DNA of 64,000 nt from an uncultured Flavobacteriaceae bacterium (GTDB lineage: Bacteria; Bacteroidota; Bacteroidia; Flavobacteriales; Flavobacteriaceae): contig CANLCJ010000004.1 of the NCBI GenBank assembly GCA_947489085.1, positions 62,001-126,000 of the forward strand. Direction: 5' to 3'. Below the pieces are notes generated by a model, which had not been told where the DNA came from, ran no database searches, and worked only from the letters and a program-made list of their open reading frames with translations. This document shows, piece by piece, positions 21,048 through 27,206 of this stretch. The stretch's first letter is position 1. The number at the start of each line of letters is the position of its first letter. A program made the translations under genes and the position numbers.

Positions 21048-21458
21048 ATGAGATGCTTAAACATATTACTGATTGAAGATGACATGATAGAAGTTATGAA
21101 ATTAAACAGAACAATTTCTAAGCTAGAACTTCCTCATAAAATTATTGAAGCCAACAACGGCGAAGAAGCCTTACAATTTTTACAAAAAAAAGACGAATTA
21201 CCTGACATAATTTTATTAGATTTGAATATGCCGAAATTAAATGGCATCGAATTTTTAAGTATTCTTAAAAAAGATGAAATTTTAAGATATATCCCTACTA
21301 TTATACTTACAACCTCGAATAATCAACGAGATTTATTAGAGTGTTATAAAATAGGCATAGCTGGATATGTTTTAAAACCATTAAAGTACGAAGATTACGT
21401 TAAAAAAATTCAAAGTCTTCTTGCGTATTGGAGCATAAACGAACTAAAACAAATATGA
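21048..21458 (+). CDS. Stand-alone receiver domain response regulator
   Basis: LLIEDDMIEVMKL, IILLDLNMPKLNG, ILTTSNNQ, VLKPL. Confidence 0.9.
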   Translation: MRCLNILLIEDDMIEVMKLNRTISKLELPHKIIEANNGEEALQFLQKKDELPDIILLDLNMPKLNGIEFLSILKKDEILRYIPTIILTTSNNQRDLLECYKIGIAGYVLKPLKYEDYVKKIQSLLAYWSINELKQI

Positions 21459-21994
21459 AAGGCATAATTATTACCGAGTTTTTAGATTTAGTAGAACATA
21501 AATTTGGATTGGAAATGGTAGATGATATTATAACCAAATCCCAATTAGAATCTGAAGGCATTTACACATCTGTGGGCACCTACAAATTCTCCGAAATGTT
21601 ACAACTACTGCAACATCTAAGCAAAAACACTGGACTTTCTATAGACAACTTGCTTCTTGCCTACGCCGAACATTTTTTTGGTGTAATAGAAGACAGCTAC
21701 CCAGGTTTGTTAGCCACCTATAACGATCCTATAGAAATGCTAGCCTCTATAGAAAATCATATTCACATTGAGGTTCAAAAAATATATCCAGAAGCAGAAC
21801 TCCCTACATTCGATATTGTTACTAAAACAGACACATCTCTAACAATGATTTACAAATCCAGCAGAGCCATGCACCATTTTGGTTTAGGGTTAATGCACAA
21901 AGTCTTTGAACATTTTAATACTAAAGCCAATATTGTTTTAGAAAAGCTTAAAGACGATGGTACCGAAGTTATGTTTATTATCAATAAAAATTAA
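21455..21994 (+). CDS. H-NOX (heme NO-binding) protein
   Basis: MKGIIITEFLDLVEHKFGLEMVDDII; HIEVQKIYPEAELP (proximal-His region); YKSSR matches the YxSxR heme motif. ATG overlaps the REC stop (ATGA). Confidence 0.9.
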   Translation: MKGIIITEFLDLVEHKFGLEMVDDIITKSQLESEGIYTSVGTYKFSEMLQLLQHLSKNTGLSIDNLLLAYAEHFFGVIEDSYPGLLATYNDPIEMLASIENHIHIEVQKIYPEAELPTFDIVTKTDTSLTMIYKSSRAMHHFGLGLMHKVFEHFNTKANIVLEKLKDDGTEVMFIINKN

Positions 21995-23970
21995 TGAGTC
22001 AAGATAAAATTGACATTTTAAAACGCGCCCTATCTCGAGAAAAAGCGGCCAGAAAACAAGCTGAAAAAATTCTTGAAAATAAAGCCGCAGAACTCTACCA
22101 TGCCAAGCAGGAATTAGAGCAATCTTATTTAGAGCTAGAAAGCCTCTTAAATAAAACCGACTCCCAATTACAAGGTGTTTTCGAAAACATTGTAGATCCC
22201 TATGTTATTATGGATCTTTTCGGTAATGTTTTAAAAATGAATGAGGCCGCAGTAGATTTATTAGGCTGTGACGATATCAACTCGTATTTCAACCTTATGG
22301 ATCTAGTGCATCCAAAAGACTTGCAGTCTGTAGCAGAGTCGTTTCAATTTCTTCTAAAAAATGGCAGTATTACAGATTTTAACCTTAAAATAATTACGCA
22401 AAAACAAGAGGAAAAATTACTACACCTTAACGGCAGTATAATTTACGATAAAGGCCAGCCTCTAGCAGCTCAAGGTATCGTTAGAGACATTACAAAGGCT
22501 AAAGAAGCAGAAATACAGCTTATAGAATCTGAAAACAGACTGGCAACACTAATACTAAACTTAGACAGTGGCGTACTTCTTGAAGACGAAAACCGAAAAA
22601 TTGTACTTACAAATAATAAGTTTTGCGAACTTTTTGAAATTAAACAAACCCCAAACGAGCTTAAAGGGCAAGACTTTGCAAATGTAACAGAACATTATAA
22701 AACCTATTTTAAAACCCCCGATCTATTTATTCAAAATATTCAAGAGATCTTAAAAAATAAACACGAAGTTTTAGGTGATGAACTCGAAATGAAAAATGGG
22801 AAAATTCTAGAAAGAGATTACGTACCTATTTACGAGGGAGCAATCTATAAAGGCCATTTATGGACCTATAGAGATGTTACCTTACGAAGAAAATACCGCA
22901 AAGGCTTAGAAGCACAAAAACAAAAATACAGCAGCGTAATTGCTAATATGAATTTAGGCCTAATGGAAGTGGACAATTACGATAAAATTATAATGGTGAA
23001 TAAAAGTTTTTTAAATATTTCAGGATATAAAAAAAACGAACTTATTGGTAAATACGCCAACGAAATATTTCCTATTGAAGACGATATAAACACAATTAGA
23101 GAGGAAAACTCAGACCGTATTAAGGGACGTGCCAACTCTTACGAAATAAAATGTAAAACAAAGACAGGAAGCATAAAACATTGCCTTATAAGTGGCGCTT
23201 TAAATTACAATTTAAATGGAGAAGTTATAGGTTCCATTGGTATTTATCTAGACATAACAGCACTTAAAACACTACAGCTTCAAAAAGAAAAATTACTTAT
23301 AGAATTAGAAAAAAGCAATAACGAGTTGCAAGAATATGCACATATAGTATCGCACGACCTAAAATCGCCACTTAGAAGTATAGATGCTCTAATAAATTGG
23401 ATTAAAGAAGACAATAAAGACAAACTGGACGAAATGAGTCTCCAAAACATGGAACTTATAGAAGATACATTAGAAAAAATGGAACAACTCATCTCCGATG
23501 TGCTTATGTATTCCAGCATTGGAGCTAATGTTGTGGAAGAAGACCTTGTAGATCTTAATGAACTGGTAAACGAACTACAAAAAATACTATACATACCCGA
23601 TCATATTTCCGTAAATATATTAAATACACTGCCTAGTATTAAAGGAGATAGAACCAAATTAAAACAACTGTTTCAAAACTTTATTAGTAATGCTGTAAAA
23701 TTTAACGATAAAGAAAAAGGCATCATAGAAATAGATGTTTTAAATCAAGACGATTATTATAAATTTTCGGTAAAAGATAACGGCATTGGTATAGATAAAA
23801 AATACCACGATAAAATATTTAAAATATTTCATGCTCTAAACAAAAGCAAAGACTCAACAGGTATAGGACTGTCTATTATTAAAAAAATAATAAACCTGCA
23901 TAAAGGAGATGTGTGGATAGAATCTTCCTTAGGCAAAGGCACCACTTTTCACTTTACATTAAAAAAATAG
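21994..23970 (+). CDS. Multi-PAS sensor histidine kinase
   Basis: PAS segments (QGVFENIVDPYVIMDLFGNVLKMNEAA; NMNLGLMEVDNYDKIIMVNKSFLNISGY); HisKA EYAHIVSHDLKSPLRSID; HATPase FKIFHALNKSKDSTGIGLSIIKK. Confidence 0.9.
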   Translation: MSQDKIDILKRALSREKAARKQAEKILENKAAELYHAKQELEQSYLELESLLNKTDSQLQGVFENIVDPYVIMDLFGNVLKMNEAAVDLLGCDDINSYFNLMDLVHPKDLQSVAESFQFLLKNGSITDFNLKIITQKQEEKLLHLNGSIIYDKGQPLAAQGIVRDITKAKEAEIQLIESENRLATLILNLDSGVLLEDENRKIVLTNNKFCELFEIKQTPNELKGQDFANVTEHYKTYFKTPDLFIQNIQEILKNKHEVLGDELEMKNGKILERDYVPIYEGAIYKGHLWTYRDVTLRRKYRKGLEAQKQKYSSVIANMNLGLMEVDNYDKIIMVNKSFLNISGYKKNELIGKYANEIFPIEDDINTIREENSDRIKGRANSYEIKCKTKTGSIKHCLISGALNYNLNGEVIGSIGIYLDITALKTLQLQKEKLLIELEKSNNELQEYAHIVSHDLKSPLRSIDALINWIKEDNKDKLDEMSLQNMELIEDTLEKMEQLISDVLMYSSIGANVVEEDLVDLNELVNELQKILYIPDHISVNILNTLPSIKGDRTKLKQLFQNFISNAVKFNDKEKGIIEIDVLNQDDYYKFSVKDNGIGIDKKYHDKIFKIFHALNKSKDSTGIGLSIIKKIINLHKGDVWIESSLGKGTTFHFTLKK

Positions 23971-23976
23971 ATCATC

Positions 23977-26169: not shown

Positions 26170-26486
26170 TGGAAACCCCTAATCTTAATTACGTAAATCA
26201 ACTGGCTGGAGGAGATACTACTTTCAAAAACAAGCTAATAGAAGTTATAAAAACAGAGTTCCCTTTAGAAAAAGCACAGTATTTAGAAAGCTTTAAAGCA
26301 AAAAATCATAAATTAAGCGCGGAAAATGTACACAAACTTAAACATAAAATTAGTATTTTAGGGCTTGAAAAGAGTTATAAGATAGCTGAAATATTCGAGG
26401 ACAACCTAAAAGAAGGCAGTACTAGAGATTACGAAAAATTCGATACGATCCTTGAAACCATAACACGCTATCTAAAAACGTTATAA
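26169..26486 (+). CDS. Hpt (histidine phosphotransfer) protein
   Basis: VHKLKHKISILGLEKSYKIAEIFEDNLKEG is an Hpt helix pattern. Start overlaps kinase stop (TAATG). Confidence 0.8.
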   Translation: METPNLNYVNQLAGGDTTFKNKLIEVIKTEFPLEKAQYLESFKAKNHKLSAENVHKLKHKISILGLEKSYKIAEIFEDNLKEGSTRDYEKFDTILETITRYLKTL

Positions 26487-26495
26487 CATCATTTT

Positions 26496-27206
26496 ATGAA
26501 CTGTATAATTATAGACGATGAGGCTACGGCTAGAACTATTATTACACAATTGTGTACTCAAATACCCAATATAACCTTAAAAGAAGAATTTTCTAATGCG
26601 ATTGAAGCCATAAAATACCTCAATCAAAACGATATAGATCTTATTTTTTTAGACATTCTAATGCCCGATTTTACAGGTTTCGATTTTATACAAACCCTAA
26701 AAAATCCGCCTAAAATTATTTTAACCACGTCCGATTCTAAGTTTGCCATAGAAGCCTTCGAATACAATTGTATTATAGACTATCTTGTAAAACCAATTAC
26801 ACTACCCCGTCTTGAAAAAGCTGTGCAAAAGGTAACAGCTATAACTGCAAGCTCTAAAGAAACAAGCGTAAAAGAAACGCAAGACGTAAAATCTGATAAT
26901 CACCTTTACATAAATATAGACAGGCGTTTAATAAAAATAGATATTCCCAGTATTTATTTAGTAGAAGCCAAGGGAGATTACATACAGTTAAAAACAGAAA
27001 CAAAAAATTACACCGTACACTCCACGCTAAAAAAAATAGAAGAAAAATTACCCGACGATTTATTCTTAAAAATCCACAGATCGTACGTTATAAACATCAA
27101 AAAAATTGTAGATATAGAAGACAATAGTGTACTCATTAAAAAAGATGTTATTCCCGTAAGCCGTTCTAACAGACCAGAGTTAATGAAACGCTTAAATTTG
27201 CTCTAG
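26496..27206 (+). CDS. LytTR-family response regulator
   Basis: CIIDDEATARTII, DLIFLDILMPDFTGF; LytTR YINIDRRLIKIDIPSIYLVEAKGDYIQLKTETKNYTVHSTLKKIEEKLPDDLFLKIHRSYVINIKKI. Confidence 0.95.
   Translation: MNCIIIDDEATARTIITQLCTQIPNITLKEEFSNAIEAIKYLNQNDIDLIFLDILMPDFTGFDFIQTLKNPPKIILTTSDSKFAIEAFEYNCIIDYLVKPITLPRLEKAVQKVTAITASSKETSVKETQDVKSDNHLYINIDRRLIKIDIPSIYLVEAKGDYIQLKTETKNYTVHSTLKKIEEKLPDDLFLKIHRSYVINIKKIVDIEDNSVLIKKDVIPVSRSNRPELMKRLNLL

What the first reader, a model, noticed from the sequence alone, without database searches (positions are those of the whole stretch)
21048..27206. Candidate dual nitric-oxide sensing operon: H-NOX plus FIST/NosP-like protein, each next to its own histidine kinase
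Seen: H-NOX (HIEVQKIYPEAELP, YKSSR) is directly followed by a multi-PAS kinase. A FIST protein is directly followed by a second kinase. Hpt and LytTR genes follow. Most starts overlap or abut the previous stop (ATGA at 21455, TAATG at 21992, TAATG at 26167). Established: H-NOX proteins bind NO through heme and regulate neighbouring kinases. The FIST-domain NosP family is a separate NO-responsive hemoprotein group paired with kinases such as NahK. Inference: two independent NO sensors feed one output in a Bacteroidetes cell. No GGDEF or EAL domain is visible in the window, so the output would differ from the c-di-GMP route known in Proteobacteria.
Basis: partly seen in the sequence, partly recalled or inferred. 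Interest (0 to 1): 0.85.

Follow-up and report, generated by a model that had tools for sequence, protein, structure and literature searches.

The report
Nitric-oxide phosphorelay controlling slime-sugar genes
A conserved block of seven genes in marine Flavobacteriaceae appears to sense nitric oxide with one well-understood haem protein, take a second signal through a FIST protein, and pass both along one phosphate relay to a DNA-binding regulator whose likely binding sites lie in front of a neighbouring set of exopolysaccharide genes, with no cyclic-di-GMP step.

Summary
Window 21048-27206 holds RR1 > H-NOX > HK1 > FIST > HK2 > Hpt > LytTR as one tight same-strand run, and 37 of 40 fetched relatives keep the order. 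Relatives without FIST keep RR1-HNOX-HK1-Hpt-LytTR, so FIST-HK2 is a removable two-gene input. H-NOX has all its defining residues and is close to the crystallised Kordia algicida protein. The FIST protein is not a NosP equivalog (60.6 bits against a cut-off of 450), so a second NO sensor is possible but unproven. HK1 and HK2 share one kinase core, while HK2 carries the N-terminus of other FIST-partner kinases. HK2 is therefore a chimera wired into the H-NOX relay. Neither kinase has a receiver domain, so the chemistry points to HK1/HK2 -> RR1 -> Hpt -> LytTR. The output is readable: a conserved exopolysaccharide locus (window 8180-20617) lies beside the cassette in 44 of 49 genomes that have both. 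A 21-bp-spaced direct-repeat motif precedes RR1, the exopolysaccharide operon and its porin, and those are its only three exact matches in the whole genome. No GGDEF over the curated cut-off and no EAL domain was found in that genome. I rate it a new variant of known NO signalling. Biochemistry remains untested.

The parts
21048..21458 (+). RR1: stand-alone receiver domain, proposed shared first phospho-acceptor (Spo0F-like)
   Evidence: Response_reg 3.3e-22; D58, T89, K110 in 57/57
21455..21994 (+). H-NOX NO sensor, 179 aa
   Evidence: HNOB 1.9e-39; PDB 6bdd Kordia algicida H-NOX 1.6e-93; H104 57/57, YxSxR
21994..23970 (+). HK1: three-PAS histidine kinase with N-terminal helix LKRALxREKAARKxAExILE; no receiver, no membrane domain recognised
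   Evidence: PAS, HisKA, HATPase_c; H454 invariant; N-terminus shared with another H-NOX-adjacent kinase, E 5e-16
23977..25110 (+). FIST sensor protein (FIST + FIST_C), not a NosP equivalog
   Evidence: FIST 7.5e-39, FIST_C 4.8e-36; NosP NF041558 60.6 bits vs cut-off 450
25111..26169 (+). HK2: chimeric histidine kinase = N-terminus of FIST-partner kinases + HK1-type catalytic core
   Evidence: HK1 is its best match in own genome, 232 vs 137 bits; HK1/HK2 cores one clade 99/99; N-terminus shared with FIST-adjacent kinases
26169..26486 (+). Hpt phosphotransfer protein (H55)
   Evidence: Pfam Hpt best but below cut-off; NCBI names relatives Hpt; H55 55/55
26496..27206 (+). LytTR response regulator, proposed DNA-binding output
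   Evidence: LytTR 8.8e-22, Response_reg 8e-18; D53 conserved
20936..20948 (-). Predicted LytTR site upstream of RR1, TGTCGACGAATGG; weaker half-site GTTAGACGAATAA 21 bp away at 20957-20969
   Evidence: PWM score 27.7
18495..18507 (+). Predicted LytTR site TGTAGATGAATGA upstream of the likely true start (ATG 18551) of the TPR-porin gene
   Evidence: PWM score 19.1
9454..9466 (+). Predicted LytTR site TGTCGACCAATGG in the divergent promoter of the exopolysaccharide operon
   Evidence: PWM score 20.4
18500..20617 (+). TPR + outer-membrane protein, export-porin-like; start probably 18551
   Evidence: TPR families, weak PgaA/BcsC hits; within 25 kb of H-NOX in 44/49 genomes that have both
18127..18396 (-). 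STAS-domain protein of the exopolysaccharide locus
   Evidence: STAS 1.2e-7
16687..17925 (-). Polysaccharide flippase
   Evidence: Polysacc_synt_3 1.8e-12
15357..16574 (-). GT4 glycosyltransferase
   Evidence: Glyco_trans_1_4 2.9e-20
13853..15367 (+). Glycoside-hydrolase-like protein
   Evidence: Glyco_hydro_2_C 7.9e-8
12648..13859 (+). Conserved secreted 403-aa protein of the locus
   Evidence: Conserved in the block
9559..12648 (+). Conserved 1029-aa membrane protein of the locus, no known family
   Evidence: No Pfam hit; conserved in the block
8180..9367 (-). Receiver fused to family-2 glycosyltransferase
   Evidence: Response_reg 1.6e-22, Glycos_transf_2 1.4e-20

Best explanation
This is a two-input His-Asp-His-Asp phosphorelay that controls an exopolysaccharide locus by transcription. 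H-NOX binds NO and changes HK1 activity. The FIST protein binds a second ligand (NO or haem is plausible; the ligand is unknown) and changes HK2 activity. HK1 and HK2 share a kinase core and pass phosphate to the same stand-alone receiver RR1, then to Hpt, then to the LytTR regulator. LytTR-P binds 21-bp-spaced direct repeats (AAGTGTmGACGAATGG) upstream of RR1 (autoregulation), the exopolysaccharide operon and the TPR-porin gene. NO therefore adjusts matrix production without c-di-GMP. Shown by sequence: gene content, conservation, residue integrity, kinase kinship, locus linkage, motif. Inferred: NO binding here, phosphoflow, LytTR-motif binding, and the direction of the effect.
For: Seven-gene order kept in 37 of 40 fetched clusters; FIST-free relatives keep the five-gene version. 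H-NOX residues intact; crystallised close relative. HK1 and HK2 cores form one clade apart from all other kinases of the genome. HK2 N-terminus matches other FIST-partner kinases; Flavobacterium HK1 carries the H-NOX-associated HNOBA domain, E 6e-17. Exopolysaccharide block conserved beside the cassette; genomes lacking it have other polysaccharide genes there (L099; L118 by eye). Motif PWM built only from other genomes' RR1 promoters finds sites at 10/15 operon and 14/21 porin promoters; 3 of 3 genome-wide matches lie in this locus; 89 of 128 family-wide exact matches lie within 25 kb, reversed-pattern control about 17. Motif pairs spaced 21 bp in 33 of 35. The motif follows RR1/LytTR, not H-NOX: G176 lost LytTR and motif at its cassette but has both at a second locus; G116 has relay and motif without H-NOX.
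Against: No binding, kinase or expression data. About 30% of operon/porin promoters lack a clear site. Two cassettes without an intact LytTR still have the RR1 motif (L084, L118), so the LytTR-motif association is only p=0.036. Some sites lie far from the locus, a few inside genes. The FIST ligand is undefined.
Confidence: 0.72

Rival explanations
1. One reading: two independent NO sensors (H-NOX, and FIST acting as a NosP) feed one output.
For: FIST + receiver-less kinase without its own sensor domain copies the NosP-NosK layout (PMC12570481). The NosP HMM is the only NCBIfam family hit, 1.3e-16.
Against: Far below the NosP cut-off, 60.6 vs 450 bits; only one conserved His, H366, also invariant in alphaproteobacterial FIST proteins.
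Confidence: 0.4
2. FIST senses a non-NO ligand (haem itself or another small molecule), so the relay integrates NO with a different cue.
For: FIST of V. cholerae CdpA responds to haem (PMC8846402); predicted fold is nearest FBXO22 and Toblerone-fold enzymes; FIST-HK2 is absent from about a third of H-NOX genomes.
Against: No positive evidence for any particular ligand.
Confidence: 0.45
3. Branched wiring: kinases phosphorylate LytTR directly; RR1 and Hpt form a separate branch or phosphate sink.
For: LytTR carries its own receiver; RR1 has no output domain.
Against: RR1, Hpt and LytTR are kept together even without H-NOX (L188, L199), and an Hpt needs an Asp donor, for which RR1 is the operon's only stand-alone candidate.
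Confidence: 0.2
4. The motif is bound by another regulator and the exopolysaccharide linkage is inherited synteny.
For: LytTR-motif association across clusters is modest (p=0.036).
Against: The cassette sits on either side of the porin gene and in different orientations; 21-bp direct repeats are the usual LytTR site form (my knowledge); motif and RR1/LytTR move together in G176 and G116.
Confidence: 0.12

Closest known systems
Shewanella oneidensis HnoX-HnoK-HnoB/HnoD, joined by NosP
   Same: H-NOX beside a soluble kinase; a second haem NO sensor of FIST type modulates the same network (title of Nisbett 2019, PMC7290162, listed; PMC8846402)
   Different: There the output is c-di-GMP. Here no EAL was found in the genome and the output is a LytTR regulator; the FIST is not NosP by the NCBI cut-off
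Vibrio H-NOX-HqsK and NosP-VpsS quorum relays through LuxU
   Same: H-NOX or NosP kinases feed a quorum-sensing phosphorelay ending in a transcription factor (PMC8738867)
   Different: HqsK is a hybrid kinase; here kinases lack receivers, a separate RR1 is present, the terminal regulator is LytTR, and both sensors are in one operon
Burkholderia pseudomallei NosR-NosP-NosK
   Same: FIST protein next to a kinase with no sensory domain of its own (PMC12570481)
   Different: NosR ends in a degenerate HD-GYP; no H-NOX in that operon as described
Bacillus Spo0 phosphorelay (Kin-Spo0F-Spo0B-Spo0A; from my knowledge)
   Same: Several kinases, single-domain receiver, phosphotransferase, DNA-binding regulator
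   Different: Different families for the phosphotransferase and output; input here is H-NOX and FIST
H-NOX neighbourhood network of PMC8738867
   Different: The text read names no Bacteroidota operon, relay, chimera, exopolysaccharide link or binding motif

Membership tests
H-NOX (HNOB) | HNOB domain over curated cut-off | tested here: met
   135.7 vs 25.5 bits
H-NOX (HNOB) | Proximal haem histidine and YxSxR propionate motif | tested here: met
   H104 57/57; Y133 57/57, S135 56/57, R137 53/57
H-NOX (HNOB) | Binds NO through haem | not testable with these tools
   Close relative 6bdd (Kordia algicida) crystallised
NosP | NCBIfam NF041558 equivalog cut-off | tested here: not met
   60.6 vs 450 bits
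NosP | Conserved family-specific haem-ligand residue | tested here: inconclusive
   Only H366 near-invariant (45/46), shared with alphaproteobacterial FIST; NosP ligand not found in readable literature
FIST family | FIST and FIST_C domains over cut-off | tested here: met
   134 and 124 bits
Four-step phosphorelay | Kinase His, receiver Asp, Hpt His, output-regulator Asp all present | tested here: met
   HK H454 and H147, RR1 D58, Hpt H55, LytTR D53 conserved
Four-step phosphorelay | Phosphate flows in that order | not testable with these tools
   Inferred from chemistry: kinases lack receivers
LytTR regulators | LytTR DNA-binding domain | tested here: met
   77.6 vs 22.6 bits
LytTR regulators | Binds direct repeats about two helical turns apart | tested here: inconclusive
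   Matching 21-bp repeats found at target promoters; binding not shown
H-NOX/NosP c-di-GMP pathways | GGDEF/EAL/HD-GYP output | tested here: not met
   No GGDEF over cut-off and no EAL in the genome; HD-GYP not searched genome-wide

The most novel reading that the evidence does not exclude
Flavobacteriaceae have a c-di-GMP-independent NO pathway in which two sensor-kinase pairs, one kinase being a chimera of a FIST-partner N-terminus and the H-NOX relay's own kinase core, converge on one receiver and switch a dedicated exopolysaccharide locus through a LytTR direct-repeat regulon that is readable in the genome.
Probability: 0.6. Interest if true: 0.85.

Novelty: new variant of a known kind. 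Interest (0 to 1): 0.72.

Why it matters
The characterised H-NOX and NosP systems in the papers read here lie in Proteobacteria and mostly end in c-di-GMP. This would be a complete, separable NO-to-matrix circuit in marine Bacteroidota, with named target promoters. It makes two open questions directly testable: how H-NOX works in genomes without EAL or a confident GGDEF protein, and what FIST domains outside NosP sense. The chimeric kinase is a natural example of rewiring a sensor onto an existing relay.

Tried and rejected
NosP primary papers (PMC5468770, PMC10478957, PMC7290162, PMC6812680) and PMC6689301 are not held, so the NosP haem ligand could not be compared. No PDB sequence relative of FIST. 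An apparent giant open frame upstream of Hpt in G124 (L187) is masked sequence read as X, so G124 does not show an H-NOX-free relay; G063 and G151 end at contig edges. Only G005 and G116 are taken as H-NOX-free relays. The 'unrelated neighbour' promoters used as motif controls included likely true targets (surface protein, porin homologues), so shuffles and the reversed pattern are the proper controls. The own-genome pattern was loosened to cover all three window sites, so its value is the absence of other matches; the independent test is the PWM without the window. Pel-type polysaccharide assignment considered but no PelG hit.
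Full report
WHAT IS THERE. The window lies in a 3.65-Mb Flavobacteriaceae-type genome (family placed by the named relatives). Between 21048 and 27206 seven genes run on the + strand with overlaps or gaps of at most 10 bases: RR1, H-NOX, HK1, FIST, HK2, Hpt, LytTR. Pfam confirms all but Hpt, which scores below its cut-off but is the best hit in each member tried, is named Hpt by NCBI in relatives, and has an invariant histidine.

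IT IS CONSERVED AND MODULAR. In 201 genomes of the family, H-NOX occurs in 80 and FIST in 64; 51 have both (p=2e-15) and 41 of these have them on one strand within 1.3-2.5 kb. Of 40 clusters read in full, 37 keep all seven genes in order; L072 and L074 lack LytTR, L084 has only a fragment of the Hpt-LytTR end, and L101 (counted as complete) has a split HK2. One cluster (L102) is in another family of the class. Eleven genomes without FIST keep RR1-HNOX-HK1-Hpt-LytTR. FIST-HK2 is thus a two-gene insert or loss between HK1 and Hpt. G005 (L188) and G116 (L199) keep RR1-HK1-Hpt-LytTR without H-NOX beside it, so the relay is the core and the sensors are inputs.

SENSORS. The H-NOX is sound: proximal H104 invariant, YxSxR nearly so, best PDB match 6bdd, the Kordia algicida H-NOX. 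Its hinge residue 71 is Ala in 26 and Gly in 27 of 57, which bears on the known hinge-variant work on that protein (reference 23 in PMC7356049). The FIST protein is less certain. It is a full FIST plus FIST_C protein, but 60.6 bits against the NosP cut-off of 450, and none of 50 aligned relatives did much better (best E 8e-22). Only H366 in the CxLHNQT motif is near-invariant, and it is equally invariant in alphaproteobacterial FIST proteins. The AlphaFold model is confident (pLDDT 88); its nearest solved folds are FBXO22 and, weakly, Toblerone-fold enzymes. So 'second NO sensor' is open.

KINASES. HK1 is by far the closest kinase to HK2 in the genome (232 bits, next 137). In a tree of 74 cores, all cassette HK1 and HK2 cores form one clade (99/99) that excludes every other own-genome kinase and every kinase from other FIST or H-NOX loci (bootstrap not fully settled). 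HK2's first 110 residues match kinases encoded beside FIST genes elsewhere (E down to 2e-17, including Azospirillum) but not HK1 or H-NOX kinases; kinases of tandem-FIST loci and Nostoc lack it. HK1's N-terminal helix is shared with an H-NOX-adjacent kinase from another family (5e-16; weaker matches, 1e-8 at best, to FIST kinases also occur), and in Flavobacterium HK1 carries HNOBA instead. HK2 therefore looks like a FIST-docking N-terminus on the relay's own core. Shared cores predict a shared partner. Because neither kinase has a receiver, Hpt can only be charged through an Asp protein, and RR1 is the one on hand: HK1/HK2 -> RR1 -> Hpt -> LytTR. That order is inferred.

OUTPUT. Upstream, 8180-20617 is an exopolysaccharide-type locus: receiver-GT2 fusion, 1029-aa membrane protein, 403-aa protein, glycoside-hydrolase-like protein, GT4, flippase, STAS, TPR-porin. 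The block is conserved in 20 genomes examined. Its porin occurs in 53 of 201 genomes; 49 of those have H-NOX (p=9e-21) and in 44 of the 49 it lies within 25 kb. Three of the four genomes without a detected H-NOX are unreadable beside the locus (masked or contig end). Genomes without this block have other polysaccharide genes next to the cassette (Bac_transf and OEP in L099; chain-length and sugar-transferase-like genes in L118, read by eye).

BINDING SITES. K-mer enrichment in RR1 promoters gave CCATTCGTCkACACTT. The PWM from 61 sites of other genomes has consensus AAGTGTAGACGAATGG; 52/57 RR1 promoters pass the 99% shuffle level. On promoters not used to build it, 10/15 operon and 14/21 porin promoters pass. 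Pairs are 21 bp apart in 33 of 35 cases. In the own genome, TGTMGAYSAATGR has three exact matches, at the RR1, operon and porin promoters, and none elsewhere. Over 201 genomes, TGTMGACGAATGG has 128 matches against about 17 for the reversed pattern; 89 lie within 25 kb of H-NOX or porin, and 53/80 H-NOX genomes against 14/121 others have one. A T9SS surface protein (DUF6923, sorting tail) beside many cassettes also has the site about 95 bases upstream. G176, which lost LytTR and the sites at its cassette, has RR1-LytTR-DUF6923-flippase-GT4 with sites at another locus. Against this, L084 and L118 keep the RR1 site without intact LytTR.

NO C-DI-GMP. No GGDEF over cut-off and no EAL in the genome (98.6% complete). 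HD-GYP was not searched.

KNOWN OR NEW. H-NOX with kinases, FIST/NosP with kinases, and both feeding one network are known in Proteobacteria. A review already lists FIST near hnox in one sequence group. No held paper describes an H-NOX-LytTR relay (two incidental hits) or holds the terms H-NOX, nitric oxide and Flavobacteriaceae together (none). The library excludes most subscription journals, so novelty is judged within it.

Noticed in passing
window 224-7569: Low-GC (27-30%) run of small lipoprotein-like and peptidase-like genes with a repeated module (NLEGKTVAFKVFEKVPLLEDQDKALTLIHENQEKTRIEAKVE at 1580 and 7186); looks like a duplicated secreted-effector/immunity island.
   Followed up: no
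window 8180-9367: Receiver domain fused to a family-2 glycosyltransferase inside the exopolysaccharide locus: a possible second, direct phospho-target.
   Followed up: partly
L129, L130, L131, L132: Tandem arrays of two to four FIST genes next to one kinase of a different N-terminal type, in Flavobacteriaceae genomes where no H-NOX was found.
   Followed up: no
L081:9851-12442, L070, L076, L063, L080, L082: About 860-aa surface protein (DUF6923 plus type IX sorting tail) beside the cassette with the same motif about 95 bases upstream; probable regulon member.
   Followed up: partly
L102 (G352): Closely similar cassette and exopolysaccharide locus in a genome of another family of the class; suggests horizontal transfer of the whole unit.
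   Followed up: no
L118, L116: Flavobacterium-type HK1 has HNOBA at its N-terminus while other HK1 proteins have a short coiled helix, so the proposed H-NOX docking part has been swapped.
   Followed up: partly
H-NOX residue 71, 57 genomes: The hinge position is Ala in 26, Gly in 27, Ser in 4 sequences: a natural series for hinge-flexibility studies.
   Followed up: no
window 8657-8672: Weaker motif match (score 13.8) inside the receiver-GT2 gene; probably chance.
   Followed up: no
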